Source: Homalodisca vitripennis
Lineage: Eukaryota > Arthropoda > Insecta > Hemiptera > Cicadellidae
NCBI RefSeq assembly: GCF_021130785.1
Contig: NW_025776214.1
Coordinates: 124,001 to 188,000, forward strand
Direction of reading: 5' to 3'
DNA length: 64,000 nucleotides
In this document: positions 1,000 through 64,000 of the stretch, piece after piece
Position numbering within the stretch: the first letter of the stretch is position 1
Layout: each line of letters starts with the position of its first letter
The notes under the pieces: generated by a model
Database searches by the model: none
Seen by the model: the letters and a program-made list of their open reading frames with translations, nothing else
Told to the model about the DNA's origin: nothing
Made by a program: the position numbers and the translations under genes

Positions 1000-1842
1000 T
1001 CACGGATGACTCCGGCAAGGCTTCAGATGGGATATGTGCGCCTTCCTGAATATCTTCCCGGACTGAGGATCTCCCAGTCGGGCAGTCACCGGAGTCAGAA
1101 ACTTCAAGATGCGGTGGGGACCAGTCCACCTGTAGCAAAGTTTAGCAGCTCTTTTATCCACAGCCGAACTGACTGGGTGAGCCTTGCAGTAAACTAGATC
1201 CCCCACCTGGAAGGGATTGGCAATACGACCTCGGTTGTACTTCCTCCTTACTAACTCCCTAGCCCGAATGAGATTCCGCCTGGCTGCCTCCCAAGTGGCT
1301 TTCACATTGGGAGTACCAGGAGGTGGCAGAAGATCGCTAATTTTCCAAAGGTTCGCCAAAGGGTTGTTTGGCGGAAAGCCAAATAATAACTCGAAAGGTA
1401 CCGCCTTGTGACTTTCATGCTGGGCCGTATTAAAGGCAAATTGGATCCAAGGTAGTTGTTGATCCCAGGTGGTCTGATTTTCCGCATGAAAGGCAATGAG
1501 AGCAGATCGAAGATTGCGATTAAACCGTTCGGCGTGAGAAGGCTGAGGATAGAAAGGGGAAGTAGTCACATGGCGGATTCCGTGCCCAAAGCACATTCTT
1601 TTAAAGATATTGGAGACAAACTGTGAACCATTATCGGAAACTAAGGTGGCGGGGATTCCAAAGTGTTGAAAGAAATGGTTACGAAGTGCTTGCACCGTGA
1701 GCTGCGCGGTAGCACTCCGCAATGGGAACAACCAAACAAACTTGGAGAAGGCATCCACACAAACAAGTAGGAACTTATTTCCGGACTTGCTACGCGGGAG
1801 AGGCCCAACATAGTCAATGAAAACCTTCTCCAAAGGTTTTTT
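1000..1842 (-). pseudogene. G1 pol: integrase catalytic core and C-terminus
   Basis: The 277-codon frame ending at a TGA (1000-1002) carries the DDE integrase core. The first Asp is in FIDYVG near its start, the second in VSDNGSQF, and the Glu in HAERFNR, with the spacing usual for retroviral-type integrases. The C-terminal half (RKYNRG...GDLVYCK...YRWTGPHRI) is the GPY/F-type module that binds DNA ends. The integrase joins element cDNA to host DNA in the nucleus. The frame has no proper start. It is the continuation of the zinc-finger part in the neighbouring frame and is cut off from it by one base at the A7 run (sense) near 1838-1846. The catalytic residues themselves are intact. Confidence 0.9.
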
Positions 1843-1843
1843 T

Positions 1844-2966
1844 CCGCCACCTCAGATGACAAAAGACCCAACTTGGTATTTTGAGCGGGTTTGCTTAGCG
1901 AGCACAGTTCACAAGAACGTACTCGAGCTGCAATATCCCGGTCCATACCTTTCCAGATGAACTGATCCCTAATCTTCGCGATGGTCTTATGAATTCCTAG
2001 ATGTCCGCCCACAGGAGAAGAATGAAAATACTGAAAGACCATCGGTACAAGAAAGCTTGGCAGCACTAACTTAGGTTTTCTCCGCTGCTTGTCACGGCAG
2101 CATAGAGCACCTCGGTACAGAAAATAAGGAGGGTGGGCACCTCCGTTTTTAAGCTCATTGATGATAGCAGTCAGCTCGGGATCCTTAAGTTGGTGTGGAA
2201 CAATGTCCGAAAATGCCAGAGGAAAGTCTAGGAGCACGCCACAACATGGCGGCTCTGATAAATTCTGGTGGTCGTTGGGTAAGTGATACATGCGTGACAG
2301 AGTGTCCGCTATGATATTTTGGGTGCCTCGCACGTGCTGCACTGTGAACTTAAGGGCAGAAATTTGGACTACCCAGCGACCAATCTTCCCGAGCTGACGG
2401 GGGTGGGCAAGGAGCCAAGAAAGTGCCTGGTTGTCGGTTTCCAACAAAAATTCTTTATGTTCTAGGTAACGCCTGAACTTATTAATTCCAAACACGACAG
2501 CCAAACATTCCAGCTCATAAACAGAACAACTCTTCTTCTCACAAGGGGTTAACGTGCGTGAAGCATAAGCTATGGGCTGCCGGATACCATCTACTTCTTG
2601 TGATAAAACAGCAGCAACGGCTAAGGAGGAGGAAGCATCAGTTTGCAAGACGAACTTACGACTGAAATCAGGCATAGCCAAGACTGGAGGCTGCATCACT
2701 GCCTCTTTCAGCTGCTCAAAAGCAGTCTGTTGCGCTTCACCCCACTCAAACTTGGCACCCTTTTTCCTAAGAGAGTTGAGAGGGGCCGCCACTTCAGCAA
2801 CATTGGGGATGAAACGACGATAAAAATTTATCATTCCCACAAAACGGGCAATCCCCTTGGCATCCTTAGGAGGAGGAAACTCCCTGATTGCCTGGGTTCT
2901 CTCTGGATCAATACAAACACCTCGAGAAGAGACAAGATGACCCAGAAACGATATTTCAGGCTGAGC
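1844..2966 (-). pseudogene. G1 pol: RT connection, RNase H and integrase zinc finger
   Basis: This frame continues the reverse transcriptase after a frame break. It starts with the thumb/connection segment (FVGMINFYRRFIPNVAE), then RNase H with all four acidic positions visible (QTDASSS, YELECLA, ETDNQALSW, ADTLSR). Next is the H2C2 zinc module of integrase (HSSPVGGH ... CELCSLSK). RNase H removes the RNA strand during reverse transcription. The zinc module helps integrase multimerise. An open frame starting at Met exists only from 2840, but homology runs in the same frame back to about 2966. It therefore has no start of its own and belongs to one polyprotein. It leaves the integrase frame near 1843. 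Confidence 0.9.
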
Positions 2967-4740
2967 AAAAACTCACCTTTTCAGGATTGACGGTAAGGCC
3001 AGACTCTCGCAGCCTAGTTAGAACTTCCTCTAGATGAGTCAAGTGCTCCTCATAACTCTCACTGTACACAAGCAGGTCATCCAGATAGTTGAACACGAAC
3101 TTAAATTTGACATCATGAAAGATAGAATCCAGGAGTCTGGTGAGTGTTTGGGCCCCCACAGCCAGGCCCATTGGCACTCGGGTGAACTGGTACAAATTCC
3201 AAGGCACACAAAAGGCAGTGAGAGGTCGAGACTCGTGTTTTAGAGGAATCTGATGGTATGCCTGATTAAGATCAAAAATGGAGAAATACTTGGCCTTACC
3301 AAACCAGTCGAAAGCAGAATGCAAATCGGGGAGAGGCACGGAGTCAATTTCTATCTGATCATTGAGCTTTCGATAATCCAGGACCAATCTGGACTTCCCA
3401 TTAGGTTTCGGCACTAGAAACGCTGGACTGGAAAAATTTGAACAAGACGGCTCGATCACCCCACTCTTAAGTAAATCATCAATCATATTTCTCAGAATTT
3501 CCATCTTGGGCGGAGCAAGCTTATATGGATGGGAACGTACAGGACGGGTGTCTGTAAGACGAATCTCGTATTCCAAGAGATTGGTCGTACCCAGTTTGTC
3601 AGTTAGGACTTCAGGAAAACTGGAACAAATCTGCCTTATGTCCTCAGCCTCTTTCGGCGTAAGATGTCCTAGTTGGTCAGGAGGAGTCAAGCTCTTATCT
3701 TCCATCTCTAAGGCAGCAGTCCCACGAGACTCGACATCTGAAAAGGGAACGATCACCCGCCTGGCGAAAGCAAAGAAAACATGACTGGAGGCCAAATCCA
3801 AAATCATGCCAGTTTTTCCAATAAAATCTGCTCCCAAGATGAAAGGAAAAGTCAGGTCCTTAGCGACCAAAAAGGTCCAATCCCAAGATAAATAATTAAT
3901 TTTGATGTGAATCTGGGCACTACAGATAATAGGTAAAGGTGTGCGTGAAGCAGTCCAGCAGATAAGTGAACTAGGCTCAACCTGCCGTATTAGCCCAGAG
4001 GATTTTAGATCTTCAAAAAACGATAAAGAAATCAGGCTGCGTGCTGACCCAGAATCAACCAGGGCCTTCTGCACCACATTCCCCACAAGCACATCCAGTT
4101 GTGGGCAGGTTGAGCGGGCAGCCCTTACTCCCTGCGCAGCCAGAGCAGCAACCTCCCCTCTCGGCCAACGATGATAACTGCCCCCACGTCTATTTCTTTC
4201 TGTTCTCTTTCTGTTCTGTATTAAACCAGCTACCCTTTTACCATCAAAATTAGGTACATATTTGCCCTCAAAATTACCTTTACGGCACGAGTCGGGCTTA
4301 CTCGTCCGCAAGCTTACTAGTTTTTTTTTATTAAGTGGACAAAACGGTCTAATATGTCCCACTTGCTTGCAGCCATAACAGGTAGGAGGCTGCCTACGGG
4401 AAGGAGCAGCTGCTGGCTCAGACTGCACCGGAGCATGGACCGGCCCCGGAGGCAAGTGAGGAAGATGCCTCGACATGGCCTCCCTTTGATCATCCGCATC
4501 CTGAACCCCTCTGGAGATGATGGAGAGGCGGTCCAAATCCGCAAAAGATGCGGGACGGCTACAAAAAATCAAACGGGAGCGTTCTTCAGGTTTAATGCCC
4601 TCCAAAATAAGGCTCACCAAATCCGTTTCGCTCAAGCTCAAGCGCAACACCCGGGCTACATCCCGTATCTCCCCGACAAAATGGCTCAACGTCTCGTCTG
4701 GTGCCTGAGGACGGTAAACGCGTTTCCACCCGCAAGCGCT
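2956..4740 (-). pseudogene. G1 gag-pol: capsid C-terminus, CCHC knuckle, protease, RT
   Basis: A single long frame of about 600 codons runs from Gag into Pol, so Gag and Pol are fused with no frameshift signal at their boundary. In order: the capsid C-terminal half; one zinc knuckle (CYGCKQVGHIRPFC, C-x2-C-x4-H-x4-C); the protease with the catalytic triplet in VDSGSARSLIS and the ILGADF flap-side motif; and RT fingers and palm with LVLDYRKLND, FDLNQAYHQI and the YLDD active site (3076-3087). RT copies the RNA into DNA. The protease would cut the polyprotein. The frame ends at a stop just after the palm because of one extra base in a T5 run (sense) near 2967. Its left edge corresponds to a frame switch inside capsid. 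Confidence 0.92.
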
Positions 4741-5638
4741 CCCTAACCCGAGCAGGTACAAAGAACTCCAAGATCTCGGCGTGGAACTGGTCAAATGTGG
4801 CACCTCGCTTAAGGCAGTCTAGAAGGCGATCAAAAAGCGGCCTTAAGGAAAACTGCGCTAAAATCTGCATAAGCATGGCATCTGTCATACCAGGAAATTC
4901 TCTTAGCTTAAAAACTTCCAGAAGGAAATGGATAAGTAAATTAGTGTCAAGTCCATCAACTCTGGGGAAGTGTTGTAAAACACTCCCCAAAGGATGAGGC
5001 AGTTTGCCAAAGCTAGAAAAGGAAGGCACAACTATAGATGATGCCTCACCAGCCGCTTCAGGAGGGCCACTACCCATCGGAGACATAGTAACTCTGGGAG
5101 TCTCGAAAGAAAGAGCCGGTGGATGGTTAGCAAAGGTAATGGTAGTGGGAACCTCCGTTGGAGTGACAGCGGTAAATAGTACCCCCTTCTCTTTCACCGA
5201 GCGCACCTCACTCAAACCATCTAAGGCTTGTTTTAATTTATTACTGGCCGAAAAAGCCCAACTTTTAATATCAGAGTCTAAACTAGGAGCTGACATAAGT
5301 AAAACTATTCTGTCACGCCAATGTAAAAGCTGAGATGCCAATCTAGCCTTTGCTGACCCGGACATGGGAAGTGACTCAAAATTAATGTCGTCTTCTAACT
5401 CTTCCATTCGGGTTTTACAAAACTCAAATTCAGTATTAATTTGGAACCCTGCATTCCAGCTGCGGTCCAACGCTATACAAGCCCGTAATTGAGCTCTTAA
5501 TGCCCTCACATCTCCCTCGGGCTTCTGTCCTCTCGCCAGGACCTCAAAAACCAACTCGGGCTTGCGCAGATGTTTCAGGCACCAGGGAAAACGCCATACC
5601 AAACAATTCAGACAAAATAAATACAACAAAGCGTACAC
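4728..5638 (-). pseudogene. G1 gag: SAP-like N-terminus and capsid N-terminal part
   Basis: This frame begins at an ATG at 5638. After about 30 residues of doubtful value it reads ELVFEVLARGQ followed by VRALRAQLRA, resembling the SAP-like helix pair at the N-terminus of many insect gypsy Gags. A helical capsid region of the Retrotrans_gag type follows (GVDGLDTNLLIHFLLEVFKL, FVPARVRERLR). Gag forms the particle that packages element RNA in the cytoplasm. Near 4725-4735 homology jumps to the frame of the next gag-pol segment, so about one base has been gained or lost inside capsid. That is not where a programmed gag-pol shift would sit. The true start codon is uncertain. Confidence 0.8.
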
Positions 5639-53315: not shown

Positions 53316-54140
53316 TGTGACACCTCGGTGTTAACGCCCCAAAGCTTCAACAAATAAATTAATTTAAACTAATATTAAACTGAGAATTCTGCGAAAATTT
53401 ACATAACATTAATTTAGTGACTACTTCTAATCACTATTTAGAATGGAAGTCAAGACCTCCACAAGGTGTAATAATGCCACCGTACACATTAAGTGCCATC
53501 CGGAATAATATAGCGAAATATAGGCGCTGAGCCGACTTCAGAGGAAGGGGACAGGGAATTTTTCACAGCCTGCAGGTGCATTAAACTAAAGCTAATGACC
53601 TGGTGTTGCCGCAGACACGTGTAAGGAATCCGCTGACATCAGCAAAGAGCTGTGTTCAACGCAGGCCTCGAGCCGTCCAAAGTACCATGTAGTTTTGTTA
53701 ATTACTGGGTGAATAGTTGGCGGCAGCACCTGATGGACAACCACCAGGGAAGAACTGGCGCTCTGATTGGTCGGGGGCCAAGAGAGAAGGGAAGGGGCAT
53801 CACTGGAGGCGATCTTAGAGCAGGGAGTCGTAAAATTGGTTCGGGATGCGGTAGATCATAATTCGGCTCCTCTCTCTACAATTCTCTAATTCTATTGTTC
53901 TAGAGCCAAATTCTAAATTTTCAATCATGTGTTAATTTTTAATTCAATTAGTTTTAATCTTTTGTTATCTTAATCTAAATCTCTAATCACAAACGTTCGA
54001 AATTAAACAAGTAAGATTTTATTCCGACTTCGCTGTTTTATTTCTAAAGTTCGACCTTTCCTCGCCGCGAACTCAAGAACGAAGATCCCTTCTTTTGTCT
54101 CCCACTGGGCAAACTACAGGTCGGCGGCAGATCACATAAC
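53316..54140 (+). repeat. 3' LTR of the env element
   Basis: It starts TGTGACACC right after the polypurine tract. The right end is not fixed: several CA dinucleotides near 54110-54140 are possible, after which the sequence turns T/C-rich like the rest of G2. Non-coding. Confidence 0.6.
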
Positions 54141-56390
54141 ATCACCTTTGGAAATTGAATTTGATTAAAATTTCTTGCCTTTCCACATTTCTATTTCCTT
54201 CTGGGAGAACAGTTTTTTATTTCATCACTTGTTTCCAAAGTGAATTGTATTATTGCAGTGAATTGATCCAAACGTTTTTGACTTTTCTCACATCCAATGC
54301 TTTTAAAATGTTCCATTTTAAACACCATTCTCATCTTCACTGACAAAAACTTCTTCAAACTTATGTGTCCTTAGACTTATTTTCAGACATAAAGAAAAGC
54401 ACACCATGACTGTAAAAGTGTCCAAGTCCAGTTGCTTTGGTGATTTAATTTGTTGTGATTTGCCTGTGATATTCGCGCACCACCACATTTTTTTTTACAC
54501 TAAACATTTCCTAATATTTCAAATTAAAGTTTATCACAAATAGTACCTACATTATTTATTAAACATTCTTACAACTAAGTCAAAAACAATCAACATAACA
54601 TAAATATGAACCATTATTTTTTCAAATAAATTATTACTACTATATTGTCACTAGATAAAACCTCATTCTCAGCATTTTTCATCTTACAAATTAATTCATG
54701 ATTAACTAACAATCTCTCCCATTTGTTTCTCTATAAAATTTTTAATAAAATAAAAACAATAAAATTTGTTTCTCTACTTACTTTTTTTTTAGAGAAATTA
54801 TACACCATAAATGATAAAAATTTATTTAATTAATTATCCTTTGTAGTAATCTTGCATAATTTAAATATTGTTGTTTTGTTTATTTTGATCGAGGTTATAA
54901 TAATTATACCCTGTCTATTTTGTAGTTTATTTTTATTTACCCTCCTTGTTACCTATTTGTTGTACTATTTTACTTCAAGGAACTATCTAATAGTTATCAC
55001 CTTTTATTAATCAATTACCAATTTTTAACTAATGAAATTCCTTTGCAACCCCCCAAGTCATAATAATACAATTTTGTCCCTCTGTTTTGAGTTTTATTTT
55101 TATATTAGCTGAATTCTTTTCTTCTCACCCATTTATTTGTATTCATTTAATACAATATTCTCCTAACTTCCTCATACCAGAAAATACCCATTTCGCACGG
55201 TAAAATCCCTTTTAAGTGTCCTTGCACTTCATTATTATAACTTGATTAAATGATTATTAAACCAAATATTTACTAGCCTAATATATTTCCTTTTTATTCA
55301 TCCCCCCTCTGAATTAATTAATTCAGTACTGACTTTTGAATTTATTTTATTGGCTCAATTCTATTTCATACATTATCCTGTAACTCCTATTTTCCATTCC
55401 ACTTTTAAATTGTTCCCAACCTCTCAATTTCCACTCCTATTCTCTACTATTATTTATCCACTCCAATCACAATATATCCTTCACCTTTAGCCTTTGTTCA
55501 GTGTATTTTACACTACCCCTCTATCTATCATTATCATATTAACTATTAAACAGGCCTACTTGACCTTCATCATATTAAACAGGCCTACTTCACCTACCTC
55601 TAACATTTTACTTTAAGAATAATTACTTTTATACCAGTATACCACCCAGTTGGCTTTATTATTATTATCATCTCAGTATCCCCCATGTTACTTCATTATT
55701 ATTATTATTTTATCCGTACAACAAAATAAACTAACTCATCAGAAAAACAATACACTATTTCAATAATAAATATTTTAATTAGTCTTTTTGTGCTTTTTAC
55801 TTTTCTCTTCTTCTTTCTTTTCTTTAGAATTTACTGTAGTTTCAATTTAAATAAACTGTGTTTCCTCCCTTACTTGGAATGTCATTCTCCTATTCAATCC
55901 AACCATATTTAATAATTTGTTATGAATCTTAAACTTTTAACTATTTACAAAATATGTTTGAAGTTTTAATTTTTTATACAAATGTCATCTTTTATGTATG
56001 TTTTTTTTTTGTGTTAACCACCCATAAACAATAAACTGTGAGTGATTATGTACCTTGTACTGTAAGTTGACTTCAATCGTCTTAGATGAGTATGTTTTTT
56101 GTGTTAACCACCCAGAAACAATAAACTGTGTGTGATCGTGTACCTTGTACTGTTGTCTTGAAATCATATTTCAAGTATGTTTTTTGTGTTAACCACCCAG
56201 AAACCTAACTGTGTGTGATATGTAGCTTTTGACATTTATTTGTCCCATGGCCGTCAAATCGTACAAAATCCAGCCATGCCATTTTATTCTGTTTTGTAAG
56301 ACTTTTTTATCTTTCGAAGGGAAAAAGCTACAAAGGAATAATAAAAAATCACGAAACCCATGTTGTTTTAACCCCCCATCTTTGTTTGAA
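54141..56390 (-). other. G2 3' non-coding region
   Basis: Strongly pyrimidine-rich on the plus strand, hence A/G-rich in the sense of G2, like its coding part. No env or other gene is seen. Three tandem repeats sit near its upstream end. Confidence 0.55.
56001..56220 (-). repeat. Three direct repeats downstream of G2 integrase
   Basis: Units start near 56001, 56093 and 56177. Each contains tttgtgttaaccacccagaaac, then aataaactgtgtgtgat and tgtaccttgtactgt (shortened in the third). Spacing is about 85-92 bases. They could be RNA-level elements of the 3' region or slippage products. Confidence 0.8.
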
Positions 56391-57614
56391 CTAAACCAAA
56401 TTTCTATAAAACTTTTTTAATTGTGTTACATTAAATGTTCCTATCACACCACCATCTTCGTTGACCACAACATATGCGTTTTCCAATTTTATTTGTGACA
56501 CCCTATACGGGGCCCTCATAAAGCAGAAAGAACTTCTTAATTTTCTTGTCAAGTTTGTCAGACAGATAATGTGTTTTTACTAGAACTTCATCTCCTATAC
56601 TAAATCTAATTGGTTTTGACCTTATTATCAAATTTTCTTTTCCTTATTTCCCCTTTTGAAACTAGTCTATCTTTGACTAATCTTATTTTACCTGGATAGT
56701 CAGCTAACATTCTTTTCTCTTTGGGAAATTGAACCATATCCTGTAAAAAAATTCCTATCTTTCCTACCAAACATTAGTTCAAACGGGATTTCTTCCGGTG
56801 GTCTCTTATGCACGGAATGATTTAAACACTTTTCAATGAAATTTAGTACTAATGGCCATTTAGTATGTTTCTCATGGCAGTATATCCTGCATATTTTAGT
56901 AATTTCCTTATTAGCCCTTTCAACTGGATTGAGGCTGGATGCCAAACAGAAATATGAATAGTTTTAATGTTTAAGTCTCTAAGGGTATTATACCATAAAT
57001 TACTAGTGAACTGCGAGCCATGATCGGACCAAAACACTACCTATCTCACCTACCTCAGGTATGTATTCATTGATCAATTTATTTAGTAATACTCGGCTAG
57101 TAGCTCTTTTGACCGGATACAACTTCACAAATTTAGAGAAAACAAATCCAACACAACAAATATGTATTTTAGACCTCCTCTTCCTACAGGCAATTCTCCT
57201 ATCAAGTCAACTGAGATTATATCTTTCAATTTTTTAGGAATTATTGGTTGTAAAAACTCCTATTGATTTAACAGTGGTGTGTTTGGCACATTGACACAAT
57301 TGACAACATTTTAAACTGATTCTTTACTGAAAGTTCCATCTTAGGAAAAACACAATATTCCCTTAGTATTAAATAAAATGTTATGTCCCCCCAAATGACC
57401 ATATTTTCAAATGCGTAAATTGAATTAATTCTGATTGAATTTTCTTTTGGGTACAGACTTTAAAACTATTACCATTATTTAAATTTTTCTTAAAAAGTAT
57501 TCCATTATGAATAACAAATTGATCTTTTATTTGTTGATCATTACCATCCATTTTAGTAAAAATAGGCCCAAATTTATCATCACTCCTTTGTTTTTCTTCT
57601 ATATTTCTGAACAT
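56391..57614 (-). pseudogene. G2 pol: integrase
   Basis: Parts of integrase appear in several frames. Near 57400 is the zinc-module tail. Near 57030 comes the core motif with the second catalytic Asp (WSDHGSQFTSN), then the Glu motif as NPVERANKEI near 56920, and PFELMFGRK further on. Near 56510-56600 is the C-terminal GPY-type module (DEVLVKTHYL and LLYEGP). The sense stop TAG at 56391-56393 ends Pol. At least three frame changes and a loss between the zinc module and the core make it inactive. Its job would have been cDNA insertion. Confidence 0.8.
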
Positions 57615-57629
57615 TGGTTTAATCTTCCT

Positions 57630-57888
57630 ATCGCTAACTTCAATTTAAATTTTATTTTGTAGAACCATTACCGAATTCCTTTCAACTGGATTTTTATAAT
57701 TTTTCGTCCGTTACTCTTGAAAGAATTTCAGCGGGAATATTTTGCCTTCCGCTGATGTACTCAATAGTGAGATTGTATTCTTGTAATGCCAAAATCCACC
57801 CTCAAAATTCTACCATGAGATAGCCTACAGGTTGTAAGGAAAGATAATGCCTTGTGGTCTGAACGAACAATTACTTGGCTTCCGCCAA
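57630..57888 (-). pseudogene. G2 pol: RNase H, downstream part
   Basis: In sense, after the LINE insertion, the frame reads VIVRSDHKALSFL (a catalytic Asp of RNase H). Then comes EYNLTIEYISGRQNIPAEILSRV, where the last acidic position has been replaced by Glu. It links directly to the upstream part at 59172 when the LINE is ignored. A frame break near 57800 and others make it non-functional. Confidence 0.75.
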
Positions 57889-57889
57889 G

Positions 57890-59168
57890 GGAAATCCACT
57901 ACATCAGCCATCTTCAATTTTATAAAACGAAACTATCGCTTTCTTTGGACATTAGACTTCATTTCCCTTGGTGTTTTTCTGTGATTTAAGCAAAGCGTTT
58001 GATTTCCGTTGATCATAATATTCTCCTTGGAAAAACTAGAAAAATATGGAGTTAGAGGTCACTCTTTTCAATTCATGAAGTCGTATTTGTCTGATAGGAA
58101 TCAAACCGTCCAAATCCATGATGGCCAAAATAAAGTTTTCTCATCATATAGAGCCGTTACTTGTGGTCTTCCTCAAGGCTCTATTCTTGGTCCTGTATTA
58201 TTTCTCATTTATGTAAACGATCTTCCAAAAATTTCAACAGACCTCAAAGTTTGCGATGTTTGCTGATGATTGTTCTTTTCTTGTTTCCAATAAATCCCCA
58301 CATTTGGCTATATCGAATTCAAACATCCAGTTGCAAAGTTTAAATCTGTGGTTCAATTTAAATAAACTTAAATTAAACATCAGCAAAACTAATATCATCC
58401 AGTTTCATCTAGGGAACATAAACCAGTTTAATATCCATGGTATTATCAAACTAGGAAGCGAGGAAGCCAAGCAAGAAATCTCAGTTAAATTTCTGGGTTT
58501 ATATATCGATAATAGGCTCACATGGGGCGGCCACGTGGAACATGTCTGCAAAAGGCTTCGAACCATGGGATTTGCTCTCAACCGTCTCGCCAAGGTCTGT
58601 AGCCAAGAGGTTCTACAAACAATATATTTTTCTCACATTCAATCGATTTTGAGGTACGGGTTAATGTTCTGGGGTCCATCCAGTGTAGTAAATTTTAATA
58701 GAGTATTTGTCCTCCAGAAATGGTGTTTGCGAATCATCTCAGGACGTAGGAGATTCGAAACTTGTAAACCTCTTTTCGGTGAATTAAAAATACTTACTCT
58801 GGCGGGTCTGGGTGGGGTACGAGCTGTGCTCTTTTGTTAAGGGCAATCCAAAGCTTTTTGTAAGCAATGGACACTACCATCAGTATCCGACCAGATCAAG
58901 AGGGCTGATATCTGTGGCTGCACATAGTACTAGCGCATTTGAGAGGGGTCCATACCACTTGGGTGCAAAAGCTTTTCAATGCACAGCCATTGAATATTAA
59001 AAATGAGCAAAATCTACGTTTATTAAAAAAAAAAAAAACTAAAGACACAATTTCTTGATAAATGTTTTTTACTGTGTAAGAGATTTGTCAAGTTAGATAT
59101 AATTTTAGTATTTTGACGTGTAATGTAAAAAATGTATTTTGCATTTACGAATAAAGATCTTGAATACT
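57890..59168 (+). mobile_element. Jockey-like LINE fragment inserted in G2 RNase H
   Basis: A plus-strand non-LTR reverse transcriptase begins abruptly with GFRQGKSTTSAI. It continues through LPQGSILGPVLFLIYVNDL and the FADD active site (about 58256-58270), and ends with the thumb and C-terminal region. A short 3' region finishes aataaagatcttgaatacttg. The start is cut off as in most 5'-truncated LINE copies. tacttg occurs at both junctions and may be a short target duplication. Confidence 0.85.
58009..58840 (+). pseudogene. LINE reverse transcriptase, broken
   Basis: Two overlapping frames (58009-58266 and 58256-58840) together hold RT palm blocks: the LPQGS motif, then FADDCSF with the two catalytic Asp residues, then KTNIIQF and FLGLYIDNRLTWGGHV, the usual end of a Jockey-type RT domain. 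Later text in the next frame (to 59000) continues with a PTRSRGLISV block. A single-base shift lies between the two main frames near 58255, upstream stops occur near 57960, and another shift lies near 58835. No endonuclease or ORF1 is present. The assignment to the Jockey superfamily rests on motif wording and the 3' tail style. Confidence 0.8.
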
Positions 59169-59171
59169 TGA

Positions 59172-60458
59172 AAAATGTCCAATAATATAAGATCGGAATT
59201 TTCTACAAGCTAAGACCACAGCCAATAATTCTTTTTTCTGTTATGCTATAATTTTTCTCTGTTGCTAAAAGAGTTCCTACTTGCAAAACTTATCACTTCA
59301 TGTTCCCCCTGATCATTTACTTGATAAAGAATGGCTGACACACTGATGTCTAATGCATCTGCACTTAAATAGAATGCCCTACTCCAATTTGGATGATGTA
59401 ACATAACTGAGTCTAAAAATGTTTCTTTTATTATCTCCAACAGATTTTGTTTTGTCTTTATCCCAAAAACCATTTACTTTTAGAACTCAAAATGTCACCA
59501 AACTGACCAGTCAAATCTGAATAGTTCTTCTGAAATGTTCTGTAATAATTACATAAATCTAAAAACGATTGCAGTTCTTGTTCTTTGGGGTTGGAAAAAT
59601 TCTTTATCTTTTCAACTTTGTCCTCATCCATCTTTATCCCATCTTTACTAAGAACCAAACCCAAAAACTTTACTTCCTGTTTCAAAAAATCTGATTTTTT
59701 AAGTTTAACAGTCACTCCACTCTCATGCGTCTTTTCAGTACTTTATCGATATGATTTAAATGTTCCGAAAAAGTTTTGGACGTAATTAGAATGTCATCAA
59801 CGTAAAAAGTTACGAAATCACTAAACCTCATGGCCCAAAATTTTATTCATCGCTTTAGTAAAATGAGCCGTGCTTACATTCAAACAAATGGTAATCGCTT
59901 AAATTGCAAATTTTTTCCGTTTGAATGTGAAAGCTACAAATGTTCTAGATTCTTTGTCGAGTTTGATCTGGAAAAACCCTTGCGTTAAATCTAATGTTTT
60001 AAAATATTTTAACTCCCATAAGTTTTTGAAATATATCATCAGTTGTTTCTGTATTTTGTCTATCCTGAACAAGACACGAATTTAATTTCCTACTGTCTAA
60101 GCACAATCTTATACTCAAATCTTTCTTTACTACACAGACTAAGGGATTAGAAAAAGGGCTATTTGACTCTTCTATAATATCTTGTTGTTTCAGTCTTTCT
60201 AATTCTTCCTCTACAGATTTTTCTTTTACTGAATGGAACCGGATAAGACTTGCCAATATATGGGACTTCACTTTTAACATTCAGCTTTGCTGTGAATCCT
60301 TTGACACACCCTGGTTGATCCGAAAAAACTTCTTTATTTTCAAAAAGTACTACTCTTAATAATTCTAGATCCTCATCCTTAATACTCACATTATCTGCCT
60401 CTAATTCACTTATTCTGTCTACTAAACCTTTGTTCAATTGCTTCTGATTCAGATTCAT
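59172..60458 (-). pseudogene. G2 pol: reverse transcriptase and RNase H, upstream part
   Basis: In sense from 60458: a linker, then RT blocks with IEESNSPFSNPLVCVVKKD and LCLDSRKLNS. Next is a damaged stretch, then the YVDD active site (59793-59804) followed by ILITSKTFSEHLNHI. The thumb/connection follows (VKFLGLVLSKDGIKMDEDKV, SFLDLCNYYRTFQKNYS). RNase H begins with YLSADALDISVSAIL (first Asp) and reaches the Glu block before the LINE interrupts it at about 59172. At least four frame changes are needed to follow it (near 60230, 59990, 59720 and 59470). Activity is lost. Confidence 0.85.
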
Positions 60459-60649
60459 GTTTGATCTTAGTAATTTTTTTGTTCTAGGCCTACTTGATTT
60501 GATTTGTGTTCAAAAAATGGATTTAAATTCGATAAAGTATTGTCTATTTCATTTTCATCTTTATACAAGTTAATACTGTTAATATGTATTATTCTTAACC
60601 CCCCCCCCCACAAATTCTTCACCATTTCTATACACTAATTTTAGTCTCT

Positions 60650-61015
60650 AGATATTTTCCCGTCATGTCTATAGCATAAAAGTATTGGTATCAAAGTTTA
60701 GTACAGCCTTATGATTGCTGAAAAAGTCACAACCAAGTATCAACTCAAATTTTTTAGTCCTTGAACAATTAAAAATGTTATTGGGACAACTTGTTCACCA
60801 ATATTTACCTCTGGTCTTATTTGAACATTTATTCTTGTGGACCTGACTCCTGTAACACCTACAATTGACAGATTACTAACAGGTAGCTCTGGAATGTTGT
60901 ACCCCACTTGATTTTTTATTTTCTTATAGAATTCATCTGACATTTATACATGCTTGACTACCTAAATATACTAAACACTTGTATTTTACCCCCCCCCCCC
61001 CAATACCAATATCAA
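60650..61015 (-). pseudogene. G2 pol: retropepsin-like protease
   Basis: Recognised from its C-terminal block FELILGCDFFSNHKAVLNFD and a middle frame of 67 codons (60740-60943) with IPITFL-type strands. The N-terminal block reads CLVYLGSQACI: glycine and serine of the usual D-T/S-G-S are there, but the catalytic Asp is not in frame. A G13 run (60996-61008) just upstream suggests slippage. It would cut the Gag-Pol precursor. Confidence 0.65.
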
Positions 61016-61035
61016 TTTCTGGTAAAGACTGAGCC

Positions 61036-61790
61036 CTAATCACGCATTACTCCATCATTGTAGTTGCTTTCATCTAAAAAATCATCCGCTATATTTTGAT
61101 CCATAATGATTTGATTCTGGTTACTTTGCACAACCCCTTTCAACTCTTCATTAGTTTGATTGAAAAACTCATCAATGCTTTCTTTTAAAAGTTTCAACCC
61201 ATCAATATTCAGATGAACCAAATCAGCAAATGTTTTTCCTCCAAAGTTGATGTTTTGTTCAAAATATTTTAAATTACACCCTAACTCATTGTAGTCAACA
61301 AAAGCGTGGTGTGTGACATGATTAATTTTGATTGTATCCCCATTGTCTAATGCCCGTATGAACCTGTTAAAATCTTTAACCTTTTCTCTGATGCCAATGT
61401 CTTTGGCAACTTTAGGAATTGGAGGTAGAGTCAAAATGATTAATTTCTTATTACAATTTATTAGGTATTCAACTAAATCTTTCATGTCAGTTTTTCATTT
61501 GCTTAAGTGAATTATTTTTTATAATGTAATTTGTACCACTAAAAATCATTAGGTTTTCAGATAAACTTGATGAATGTATTTTTACCTGCTCATATAATTG
61601 TTTAAATCATTTGACCCCCCCACACAAAGTCCTATTGATGTTTTACCACCAGGGGTTTTGACTGTATCCATTTGCAAAAATTTGGTTTGATAGTCTACAA
61701 AACTGACTATCGCCTATCAATTCAAAGTTGTTTATTTTTGGTCTTTCGTCAAATTTTAAGTTCGGATTTATTTCCCCTGGAATTGTTGGT
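61036..61790 (-). pseudogene. G2: SGNH (GDSL-type) hydrolase-like domain between Gag and protease
   Basis: Sense text shows a first strand with the nucleophile block FELIGDSQFCRL (GDS codons 61706-61714). A glycine block follows with PGGKTSIGLCVGGSND (GSND codons 61606-61617), then a strand ending in the Asn block LMIFSGTNYI (61529-61537). Next is a strand KKLIILTLPPIPK, and finally the catalytic pair block FADLVHLNIDG (D-x-x-H, 61213-61224). Ser to Asn is about 59 codons and Ser to His about 164, close to small SGNH enzymes. These hydrolases act on esters or acetyl groups. The role in the element is unknown. At least three single-base frame changes break it, as elsewhere in G2. The longest intact frame (61036-61485, 149 codons) covers the second half. 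Confidence 0.7.
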
Positions 61791-61794
61791 TTGT

Positions 61795-62254
61795 CAATTT
61801 TGACCATTTTCAATTTCCCTAGGCCCATAAAAGTTTTCTGAATTGTTCCTATAGTTGTGTCCCCCCCGGTAATTTGGTCCACCCCTGTAATTTCCCCTAC
61901 CTCGAAATGTTCTGAAACCCTCGGGTCTGTTGTATCCCCTATTATTTTCCGGATTCCTTTCAAAATGATTCCCATTAGTGTGATTGGCCCTACCATTGTT
62001 GGTATGAGAAAACTGTGTGGTATTTACCGCCCTGTTCTCATGATTTGGCCTATACTGCTGCCCTTGGGTATTGTCATGAAAGTTTGTGTTGGCCTTCCCG
62101 TGTATGTTTTTTGTCTATTTACATTTTTATGATTAGTGTTGTATGTATCCCTAAAACTTTCTTTTTTGAAAGGCTTTACATAACTGAGCTGATTTAATAC
62201 TACTTCTAGTTCTTCCCTACCAGCAAGGGATTGTAGAATTGCCAGGCTTGGCAC
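61795..62254 (-). pseudogene. G2 gag: basic RGG-type tail
   Basis: One frame reads from the end of capsid into a Gln/Asn-rich linker (to 62024). Another carries GFRTFRGRGNYRGGPNYRGG (about 61865-61925 in sense), an Arg-Gly tail that presumably replaces the zinc knuckle as the RNA-binding part. No CCHC knuckle is seen in G2. The tail runs into the SGNH-like domain after one more frame change. Confidence 0.7.
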
Positions 62255-62640
62255 TTATGTGTGGCGGCAAATGCCGACAAATAAAGCCAACAAAACGTAA
62301 GGTTATCCATCTGGTTGTCCAATTTCTTTGCTATGTCAAAATACCCAAGCACATAGTTTGTCAAATCGGTTTTACCTTCACAAAAATTCCCATTACCCAT
62401 CAATTTGTTTTCAAAATCTTTTTGTTTAGTAATGCCCCAGAATCTCTTTTTGAAATCATTTTTAAATTGTTCAAAACCCTTCCATTTGTCAATGTTTCTC
62501 CGAGCCCACTCAGATGCTTCCCCCTTCAAGTATTTTACAATGTACAAAAGTTTTGTTTCCCAGTGTTCTTGATTACTATTAGTAAATTTTTCAGCCAATT
62601 TCAAAAAATTTCATAGGGTGAGTCCTATCATTACCCTCAT
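62206..62640 (-). pseudogene. G2 gag: capsid region
   Basis: The frame of 132 codons from 62604 has the helical, charged text of the Retrotrans_gag family: KLLYIVKYLKGEASEWARR, FEQFKNDFKKRFWG, then a YFDIAKKLD helix. It would form the particle shell. It overlaps the frame of the Gag tail at 62206-62254, and the upstream part of Gag is in a different frame (break near 62620-62700). Confidence 0.75.
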
Positions 62641-62700
62641 CAAACTCGGTTCAAATAGAGTTCCGCCATAATATTACAAGCCGGTTGTTGATTAAGACCG

Positions 62701-63353
62701 CTACCCTCTATTTTTACGCTTTTTCACAGTGGTCTGAACTTTGTTCGACTCAACTAGTAGGCCTGATTCCTCTTTTAAATTTGATTTAGATTCTTCCCCG
62801 TTTATGCCTACCTTAGTACTTTCACTCATCCGTACATAATCTTTTATGCTCAGTATCTCCGTTGCATGTGTATCGATTTTATTTGCAATCTCATCAACCG
62901 GAGAAACTAATCTGTGAAACCTCTTGATCGAATTTTTGATTGACTTTAGCAATTTTAGTTTCAACTTCTTCCCCCACAACTTTAATTTCTCCCTTCAATT
63001 CACTTTGAACGTTCTCAATTTTTGTGTTTAATTTTTGTTCAATTTGTGTCATGCCCGTTTGAACGTCATCCATTTTGCTATAAATATCGGTTTTTAGATC
63101 ATCCATCTTTGTGATAAATATCGGTTTTTACCTCATCCATCTTGTTATTTAACCCATTTAATTTGTCATTGAGTTGTGTCATCAAGAACAACAATTGCTA
63201 ATATGCATCACTTCTATCTAGGCCTACCACCGTTTCAACATTATTCGCATTAGCCAAAGAGCTGTCTGATCTAGGCCTATTAGCTAGCTCCGCGAGCGTT
63301 ATCTCACTACTACTGTCCGAATTGTCAATATTCTCTAAGTTCTGATCCATCAT
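62701..63353 (-). pseudogene. G2 gag: N-terminal coiled coil
   Basis: The sense ATG pair at 63348-63353 opens MMDQNLENIDNSDSSSEITL, about 95 bases after the primer-binding site, so this is the probable Gag start. After a stop near 63200 the text continues as a heptad-rich coiled coil (MTQLNDKLNGLNNKMDEV, later IEQKLNTKIENVQSELKGEI), broken by at least two frame changes. It probably drives Gag multimerisation. It is unlike the SAP-like start of G1, so the two elements belong to different lineages. Confidence 0.7.
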
Positions 63354-63429
63354 TTTTAAATTTTGATTTAGCCTATTTCAAATTAGAAAACCCCTAGACA
63401 ATTATTAAGCTACACCACTTTTAGCTGCC

Positions 63430-63447
63430 CCACGTTGCTGGGCGCCA
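63430..63447 (-). other. G2 primer-binding site
   Basis: In sense TGGCGCCCAGCAACGTGG, starting two bases inside the 5' LTR edge (63450). TGGCGCC is the usual start where a lysine tRNA primes, but the primer was not verified. Confidence 0.8.
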
Positions 63448-63449
63448 TG

Positions 63450-64000
63450 TGCAACGGATACGTTACATAAAATAAATAGTAAAAATAGATAGGCTATGTG
63501 AAAAATGTATTAGCTTTAGATTTTTTGTTTAGAAGGCTAACTTATATCTTTTAAATTTTGAAACTAGGCCTTGCCTAGTTAGGTATTTTTTTAAATTATG
63601 AAACTTAGCCCTAGACTAGGACTATGCCTACACCTAGGCTTCTGAGACCTTTTTTACAGGGTCGTTTTGCAATGGGTGAGGCGTAGGGCAGCTATGTGTG
63701 GTGAATGAAAATCAAATTTTAATAGAAACAAATTTTAAATGTATTGAATAAAAACTAATACTAATGAAACATGATTTTGATGAAATGAAATTAAGGCTAT
63801 GCTTAAACTAACATCCTACAACACAAAATCCAATTAGGTTGAAATAATTATTTAGAAAATACCCCTTACTCCCTAGCAGTTAAAATTTAGAGTCTGATTA
63901 ATTAAAAATGTTGTTCGAAAAGGTTTAAATACTCTTAAACATATTCACCAAATCCCATGATGGCGACACGGCGGTCCTCACAGACTGAAACTATCACGAA
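63450..64000 (-). repeat. 5' LTR of G2, truncated by window edge
   Basis: Matches 46957-47520 with about a dozen differences, including a shorter GT repeat (tatgtgtggtg versus tatgtgtgtgtggtg). It contains the sense end CCGTTGCA. The promoter end is outside the window. Confidence 0.9.

What the first reader, a model, noticed from the sequence alone, without database searches (positions are those of the whole stretch)
61036..61790. SGNH (GDSL-type) hydrolase-like domain in a Ty3/gypsy element, between Gag tail and protease
All four signature blocks of the fold are readable in order on the minus strand (GDS, a glycine block, GTN, DxxH), at spacings (about 59 and 164 codons from Ser) close to E. 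coli thioesterase I/lysophospholipase L1. The hydrophobic strands that should precede them are also there. From memory, SGNH/esterase domains occur in ORF1 of CR1-like LINEs; I do not know of a Ty3/gypsy lineage with one at this position. If intact relatives exist, an esterase carried as part of Gag-Pol would be a new element architecture.
Basis: partly seen in the sequence, partly recalled or inferred. Interest (0 to 1): 0.87.

Follow-up and report, generated by a model that had tools for sequence, protein, structure and literature searches.

The report
Oskar-like enzyme domain in a retrotransposon
A decayed insect retrotransposon carries, just before its protease, an enzyme-like domain of the same family as the OSK domain of the insect germ-line gene oskar, which bears on the debated origin of that gene.

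Summary
On the minus strand, in two frames, the window reads IGDS, LCVGG, SGTN and DLVHLN in order. A profile of six OSK-family proteins, none from the element, ranks the two open pieces of this stretch first and second of 264 pieces (75.1 and 17.2 bits; best of 1000 shuffles 12.0).

A near-identical Homalodisca vitripennis protein scores OSK 69.3 bits, Lipase_GDSL_2 35.3; its best solved-structure match is Drosophila Oskar.

The architecture is real: P0001 runs from the domain into the protease, and two 1313-1318 aa proteins run OSK-PR-RT-RNaseH-integrase unbroken. Seven block residues are invariant in 4 of 4 related domains. The nucleophile Ser is read only in the window copy and in OSK proteins outside the element.

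Element and Oskar domains form one clade apart from 10 bacterial and four unplaced SGNH proteins (92/93). The direction of transfer is unresolved. OSK is published as a bacterial acquisition; this element makes that claim testable.

The parts
61036..61494 (-). Open 152-aa piece: C-terminal two thirds of the OSK/SGNH domain with LTLPPIPK (61411-61434) and DLVHLN (61207-61224), plus the linker to the protease
   Evidence: OSK E 1.9e-5; 96% identical to P0001 and P0002; 75.1 bits with the OSK profile lacking element sequence
61495..61642 (-). Frame-broken middle of the domain: LCVGG (61615-61629, starts in the neighbouring frame) and SGTN (61529-61540)
   Evidence: Three-frame reading, motif positions, tblastn of P0002 over 61671-61132 at 77.6%
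61643..62023 (-). Open piece with the nucleophile block IGDSQFCR (61694-61717) at its downstream end
   Evidence: second-ranked piece, 17.2 bits
60740..61037 (-). Retropepsin (PR) remains directly after the domain
   Evidence: tblastn of P0001 residues 153-181 at 61037-60945 (83.9%) and 182-226 at 60943-60809 (95.6%); 48-50% to P0003/P0004
59163..60509 (-). Reverse transcriptase and first part of RNase H, frame-broken
   Evidence: 43-65% identity of pieces to P0003/P0004; RNase H Pfam hits; end
56391..57889 (-). Rest of RNase H, integrase and C-terminal tail, frame-broken
   Evidence: tblastn with P0003/P0004; pieces 35-61% identical
62206..62610 (-). Gag capsid-like piece
   Evidence: Retrotrans_gag 1.1e-3 and Ty3_capsid 4.4e-3, both under cut-off
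61794..62114 (-). Gly/Arg/Asn-rich Gag tail; no CCHC knuckle seen in this broken copy
   Evidence: Open frame; no Pfam family at E 1 or better

Best explanation
It is an OSK-family SGNH hydrolase domain built into the Pol polyprotein of a Ty3/gypsy lineage, between Gag and protease. The window copy is a dead, frame-broken insertion. SHOWN: the domain, its place, its continuity with PR-RT-RNaseH-IN in natural unbroken relatives, conservation of its checkable block residues, and its closeness to OSK domains. INFERRED: it is made with Pol and so carried in the particle at Gag-Pol stoichiometry; it is freed or exposed by the adjacent protease; and it acts as an ester hydrolase or lipid-binding module that helps the particle with host membranes or an acylated substrate, much as proposed for the esterase of CR1-type ORF1 proteins. 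Element and Oskar domains descend from one ancestor and split long before the hemipteran host lineages; which way the domain moved is open. Confidence by step: OSK family and place 0.95; part of a functional lineage 0.9; catalytically active 0.65; membrane or lipid role 0.35. The figure below is for the whole statement up to catalytic activity.
For: OSK 69.3 vs GDSL_2 35.3 bits in P0002, 70.5 vs 49.3 in P0003, 37.5 vs 34.7 in P0004, 77.7 vs 40.6 in P0005. Oskar is the best solved-structure match of P0002 (1.4e-5) and of the element profile (3.5e-9). OSK profile lacking element sequence: element-type rows 140.6-161.4 bits (4 of 4), bacterial rows 8.6-33.0 (10 of 10). One unbroken chain OSK-RVP-RVT_1-RNaseH-H2C2-rve in P0003 and P0004, each above its cut-off. 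Shared lineage: RT 66.4%, integrase 67.7%, OSK 37.2% between P0003 and P0004. All seven block residues invariant in 4 of 4 rows, where 36 of 174 columns are invariant. Clade of element and Oskar rows 92/93, 94/95 without dipteran rows.
Against: The Ser block was not seen in any intact element protein: the models of P0003, P0004 and P0005 start 2-3 residues after it and P0002 later still. P0004's OSK score (37.5) is only just above that of a Bacteroidales protein (33.1), and two of the eight bacterial proteins scanned pass Pfam's OSK cut-off. The window piece alone finds no SGNH structure. No activity, processing or packaging was measured. P0005 is assigned to the elements by sequence only.
Confidence: 0.7

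Rival explanations
1. Host to element: an ancient element captured the domain from a host oskar-like gene, early in insect history and before flies lost the active site.
For: Element and Oskar rows share a clade (92/93). AU does not reject element plus hemipteran OSK as one clade (p 0.149) nor element monophyly (p 0.278). The window copy and hemipteran OSK share GDSQFCR.
Against: Element domains are as far from hemipteran (32.1%) as from cricket OSK (32.6%), near the hemipteran-cricket value of 35.1%, so not a recent hemipteran capture. Element rows keep C[VI]GGQ like the outlying P0063 group, while Oskars read CVSG; but SGQT also occurs in bacterial SGNH proteins (alignments), so this is weak.
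Confidence: 0.35
2. Element to host: Oskar's OSK domain is a domesticated piece of such a Pol polyprotein, fused to a LOTUS domain in an early insect.
For: P0003 branches below the remaining rows in a tree without dipteran Oskars (81/78 with them, 82/79 without). C[VI]GGQ is shared with the outlying group. The domain is a stable part of the element lineage. A mobile vehicle is ready-made.
Against: Supports are low, and neither element monophyly (p 0.278 and 0.277) nor Oskar monophyly (p 0.435) is rejected. Oskars of most insect orders were not on hand; hosts of P0003 and P0004 are unknown.
Confidence: 0.3
3. Common source: both took the domain from a third eukaryotic or viral SGNH family, such as that of P0063, P0066-P0068.
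For: These four form the nearest outlying group (87/61, 89/74), share CVGGQT and are about equally distant from element and hemipteran rows (27.0 and 27.5%).
Against: Their organisms and contexts are unknown (tags lgn and ena only).
Confidence: 0.3
4. The domain is not an enzyme in the element but an RNA-binding module, as reported for fly OSK, standing in for the missing CCHC knuckle.
For: Fly OSK is reported to bind RNA and to lack the triad (PMC8662646, passage). No CCHC knuckle was seen in this broken Gag.
Against: Asn and Asp/His, lost in dipteran OSK, are invariant in 4 of 4 element-type rows.
Confidence: 0.25
5. Chance resemblance, or a host gene fragment inserted into this one copy.
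For: The window copy is badly frame-broken.
Against: Top of 264 pieces and above 1000 shuffles; the same join in P0001 and in two diverged unbroken polyproteins.
Confidence: 0.01

Closest known systems
OSK domain of Oskar (Pfam PF17182; PDB 5a4a, 5cd9)
   Same: Best family score in 4 of 4 element-type rows; motif run GxC[VI]xGQ, IGTND, T[LI]PPIPK, FE, D[LM]VHLN shared with hemipteran and cricket OSK proteins
   Different: Sits in a retroelement polyprotein instead of behind a LOTUS domain; keeps Asn and Asp/His that dipteran OSK has lost; C[VI]GGQ instead of CVSG
SGNH esterase in ORF1 of CR1/RTEX-type LINEs and Penelope-like elements (Schneider et al. 2013, PMC3905857, passages; PDB 4c1b)
   Same: SGNH fold family carried by a retroelement in a Gag-like position; proposed membrane role
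   Different: Separate ORF1 of elements without Gag or protease; 4c1b scores 19.6 bits with the element profile against 39.7 for Oskar
GDSL ORF3 of rotifer Vesta LTR elements (Rodriguez et al. 2017, PMC5408684, passages)
   Same: GDSL/SGNH domain in an LTR retrotransposon
   Different: A separate third ORF, placed by the authors apart from pol; here the domain is fused ahead of the protease. Sequences were not compared
Ty3 Gag-Pol (PDB 7q5b)
   Same: Best solved match of RT to integrase of P0003 and P0004
   Different: No match to the first 440 residues of either protein, where the OSK domain lies

Membership tests
OSK domain family (PF17182) | Profile score above the curated cut-off of 27 bits | tested here: met
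   P0002 69.3, P0003 70.5, P0004 37.5, P0005 77.7 bits. The window's own piece alone 24.4, below. Two of 8 bacterial proteins also pass (33.1 and 27.4)
OSK domain family (PF17182) | Groups with Oskar OSK domains to the exclusion of bacterial SGNH proteins | tested here: met
   Clade 92/93 and 94/95 with 10 and 6 bacterial rows from plasmids; the bacterial set of Blondel et al. was not on hand
Oskar protein | N-terminal LOTUS domain in the same protein | tested here: not met
   Pfam on P0001-P0004 shows no LOTUS domain; retroelement domains instead in P0003 and P0004. So it is an OSK-family domain, not an Oskar
SGNH hydrolase | Blocks with Gly, Asn and Asp-x-x-His | tested here: met
   Invariant in P0002-P0005
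SGNH hydrolase | Nucleophile Ser in the GDS block | tested here: inconclusive
   Present in the window copy at 61706-61717 in a frame apart from the histidine block; outside the gene models of P0002-P0005
SGNH hydrolase | Esterase activity | not testable with these tools
   Needs an assay
Ty3/gypsy (Metaviridae) | Pol order PR-RT-RNaseH-IN | tested here: met
   P0003 and P0004; Ty3 is the best solved match; window pieces in the same order
Ty3/gypsy (Metaviridae) | Flanking LTRs | tested here: not met
   No LTR pair for the window copy in 54000-64000 or between 55301-56700 and 63001-64000; the 5' LTR may lie beyond the window edge or be lost. DNA of P0003 and P0004 could not be read

The most novel reading that the evidence does not exclude
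The OSK domain of the germ-line determinant Oskar is a domesticated piece of a Ty3/gypsy Pol polyprotein: an element-borne SGNH hydrolase fused to a LOTUS domain in an early insect, so that the gene's nearest source is a retrotransposon rather than a bacterium.
Probability: 0.3. Interest if true: 0.96.

Novelty: new variant of a known kind. Interest (0 to 1): 0.86.

Why it matters
Blondel et al. 2020 (PMC7250577, passages seen) report that BLAST with the fly OSK domain at E < 10 found no eukaryotic sequence resembling it, that HMM searches of a 2016 database found only fungal CAZ3 proteins besides bacteria, and conclude that OSK came from bacteria. A 2026 follow-up (PMC13389597, passages) repeats that attribution; its screen removed metazoan transposable elements as confounders. 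A eukaryotic, element-borne relative that scores four to five times higher with an OSK profile than any of ten sampled bacterial SGNH proteins changes the comparison set for that claim and offers a vehicle by which such a domain could enter and move between insect genomes. A deeper bacterial origin of the whole family is not excluded. Separately, a hydrolase fused ahead of the protease in Pol is an element architecture that I did not see described in the listings and passages (open-access library only; searches list only part of their hits).

Tried and rejected
Chance or a host-gene insertion in one copy: rejected. Generic thioesterase-I type: not supported, OSK scores higher in 4 of 4 element-type rows. 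Recent capture from a hemipteran oskar: not supported by identities, though AU does not exclude element plus hemipteran (p 0.149).

Polarising the transfer by tree failed. One search used 33 rows: 23 of the 68 proteins held plus 10 bacterial (P0065 dropped beforehand). One search used 21 rows, after dropping 12 of these (six dipteran, P0053, P0062, four long-branched bacterial). None of the five AU tests nor the two rejects its grouping. The one holding Oskar and bacteria on one side of a branch (p 0.23) means that Oskar may be the first branch among the eukaryotic rows.

Scans: IMG/VR gave one weak fragment (L001, query residues 4-27), not followed. The bacterial/archaeal genome scan with A4 confirmed none of 19 stretches. 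Plasmids: no match for P0050 or P0002. The bacterial sample is therefore not the set nearest to OSK: three rows came through P0063, seven of the 20 records through a copied GDSL fragment. The phage protein L005 was fetched and left out of the trees. NCBIfam gave only transposase and group II RT matches below cut-off in the pol part. Profiles of the outlying group do not rank Oskar first.

Papers read as passages: PMC5408684, PMC3905857, PMC7250577, PMC13389597, PMC8662646, PMC3286476, PMC6431247, PMC5718144. PMC3286476 has only a host esterase gene near an insertion; PMC6431247 and PMC5718144 only mention the rotifer GDSL ORFs. (oskar in Hemiptera, Homalodisca elements, leafhopper oskar) were seen as listings and added only PMC8662646.

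Full report
WHAT WAS CHECKED. The finding names four SGNH blocks on the minus strand at 61036-61790. They are there: IGDS 61706-61717, LCVGG 61615-61629, SGTN 61529-61540, DLVHLN 61207-61224. From those coordinates Ser to Asn is 59 codons and Ser to His about 164; in the unbroken hemipteran protein P0047 the distances are 58 and 164 (positions). The copy is frame-broken, so the blocks lie in two frames. To test chance without joining frames, I built a profile from six OSK-family proteins with no element sequence among them (P0045, P0047, P0048, P0049, P0050, P0056; two from unnamed sources) and scored every stop-to-stop piece of at least 50 aa in the window. Of 264 pieces, 61039-61494 came first (75.1 bits, E 3.8e-22) and 61646-62023, the piece with GDS, second (17.2 bits); the best of 1000 shuffles of the first piece had 12.0. 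A plain single-sequence search of the 152-aa piece against solved structures found no SGNH protein (best E 0.42), so the identification rests on profiles and on close relatives.

WHAT IT IS. Pfam on the 152-aa piece alone names OSK (E 1.9e-5, 24.4 bits, cut-off 27). The protein search found two Homalodisca vitripennis (glassy-winged sharpshooter) proteins 96% identical to the piece, P0001 and P0002, so the window comes from that species or a near relative (inference). P0002 scores OSK 69.3 bits, Lipase_GDSL_2 35.3 and Lipase_GDSL 28.6. Its best solved-structure match is Drosophila Oskar (5a4a, E 1.4e-5). A profile of three element domains plus the window piece puts Oskar first among all solved chains (3.5e-9, 39.7 bits), ahead of a bacterial GDSL protein (7ddy, 32.4) and the non-LTR ORF1 esterase 4c1b (19.6).

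ARCHITECTURE. P0001 runs from the C-terminal part of the domain into a retropepsin-like stretch with DSG (protease families below cut-off). Two longer proteins, P0003 (1313 aa) and P0004 (1318 aa), from unnamed sources, carry OSK, RVP, RVT_1, RT_RNaseH, Integrase_H2C2 and rve, each above its cut-off, in one unbroken chain; their RT to integrase part matches Ty3 best among solved structures. Between P0003 and P0004 RT is 66.4% identical, RNase H 72.7%, integrase 67.7%, OSK 37.2%, linker plus protease 40.1%; the window's pieces fit the same order. The join from D[LM]VHLN through a D-E-[NS]-N-[FY] ... LPE linker to the protease is alike in P0001, P0003 and P0004 (reading). So the domain is a stable part of the lineage. 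The gene models of P0003 and P0004 start 2-3 residues after the expected Ser.

CONSERVATION. Among P0002-P0005 (P0005 is placed with the elements by sequence only; 98/97 with P0002), 36 of 174 ungapped columns are invariant, and all seven block residues tested are among them (G of GGQ; G, T, N, D of GTND; Asp and His). Mean identity of the four is 38.3%. The Ser could be read only in the window copy and in OSK proteins outside the element. dN/dS was not possible.

RELATION TO OSKAR AND BACTERIA. The OSK profile without element sequence gives 140.6-161.4 bits to the four element-type domains, 8.6-33.0 to ten bacterial SGNH proteins, 47.8-70.1 to six dipteran Oskars and 50.3-78.3 to the four unplaced relatives P0063, P0066-P0068. 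With Pfam's OSK model the margin over bacteria is smaller: element-type rows 37.5-77.7, best of 8 bacterial proteins 33.1. In a 33-row tree ten bacterial rows are split from the 23 others (99/96), and element rows, Oskars, P0056 and P0057 form one clade (92/93) apart from the four unplaced relatives. Without dipteran and other long or partial rows the same splits have 100/100 and 94/95. Inside the clade the order is not resolved. P0003 falls below the remaining non-dipteran rows (81/78 and 82/79), but AU tests reject neither element monophyly (p 0.278), Oskar monophyly (0.435) nor element plus hemipteran (0.149). Mean identities: element-hemipteran 32.1, element-cricket 32.6, hemipteran-cricket 35.1, element-bacteria 16.7. 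So this is not a recent hemipteran capture. Element rows read C[VI]GGQ, as the outlying group and P0057 do; Oskars read CVSG and P0056 CISG. Bacterial SGNH proteins can also read SGQT (alignments), so this letter does not settle the direction.

MECHANISM. Committed reading: a catalytic or lipid-binding SGNH module made as part of Pol, packaged with it and processed by the adjacent protease, acting at membranes or on an ester substrate. This leans on the ZfL2-1 ORF1p esterase, reported to bind negatively charged membranes (PMC3905857, passages; the same passages say that this ORF1p is dispensable in a HeLa assay). The rival is RNA binding, as reported for fly OSK (PMC8662646, passage), attractive because no CCHC knuckle is seen in this broken Gag. 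Retention of Asn and Asp/His, lost in dipteran OSK, favours the first. Packaging, processing and activity are inference.

KNOWN AND NEW. SGNH domains in retroelements are known: ORF1 of CR1 and RTEX LINEs and Penelope-like elements (PMC3905857), and a third ORF in rotifer Vesta LTR elements, shared with Athena elements (PMC5408684, passages). In (20 of 1,114 listed; 8 of 8; 2 of 2; 3 of 3; 12 of 586; 12 of 15; 4 of 4) I saw no paper that has the domain fused ahead of the protease and none that links OSK to a retroelement; passages of eight papers were read, the rest only as listings. Blondel et al. report that BLAST found no eukaryotic sequence resembling OSK and that an HMM search found fungal CAZ3 proteins as the only eukaryotic ones (PMC7250577). 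The element is thus a new variant of a known kind, with unusual weight because of the family to which its domain belongs.

LIMITS. The genome search and structure prediction did not complete; organisms of the long proteins are unknown; Oskars from most insect orders and the bacterial set of Blondel et al. were not on hand; the protein search scored only 8000 candidates; the paper library is open-access only.

Noticed in passing
P0047, P0048, P0049, P0052, P0053 (named Hemiptera) and P0045 (unnamed); not in the window: Leafhoppers and a spittlebug encode OSK-domain proteins, with the Ser, Asn and His blocks intact in P0047, although oskar is reported as nearly absent from Hemiptera (PMC8662646, passages). 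Pfam shows no LOTUS domain in the five named ones and P0045.
   Followed up: partly
P0050 and P0062 (Gryllus): Cricket OSK proteins keep GDS and DLVHLN, and P0050 also GTND, whereas fly OSK is described as lacking the catalytic triad; some insect OSK domains may still be enzymes.
   Followed up: partly
window 1000-4818 (-), possibly to 5647: A second, better preserved Ty3/gypsy-type element with a CCHC motif (read by eye), RT, RNase H and integrase; none of its pieces is among the top 8 with the OSK profile.
   Followed up: partly
window about 57890-59162, RT pieces 58003-58840 (+): A reverse transcriptase fragment on the opposite strand, probably a LINE, splits the RNase H region of the element (both RVT_1 matches below cut-off).
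   Followed up: no
window 56000-56238: Three tandem copies of a 64-base unit about 85-90 bases apart, just beyond the integrase end of the element.
   Followed up: no
P0063, P0066, P0067, P0068: Four short proteins of unknown organism with GDS[IL]..RR-like and CVGGQT blocks form the nearest group outside the Oskar-plus-element clade; their origin would help to polarise the transfer.
   Followed up: partly
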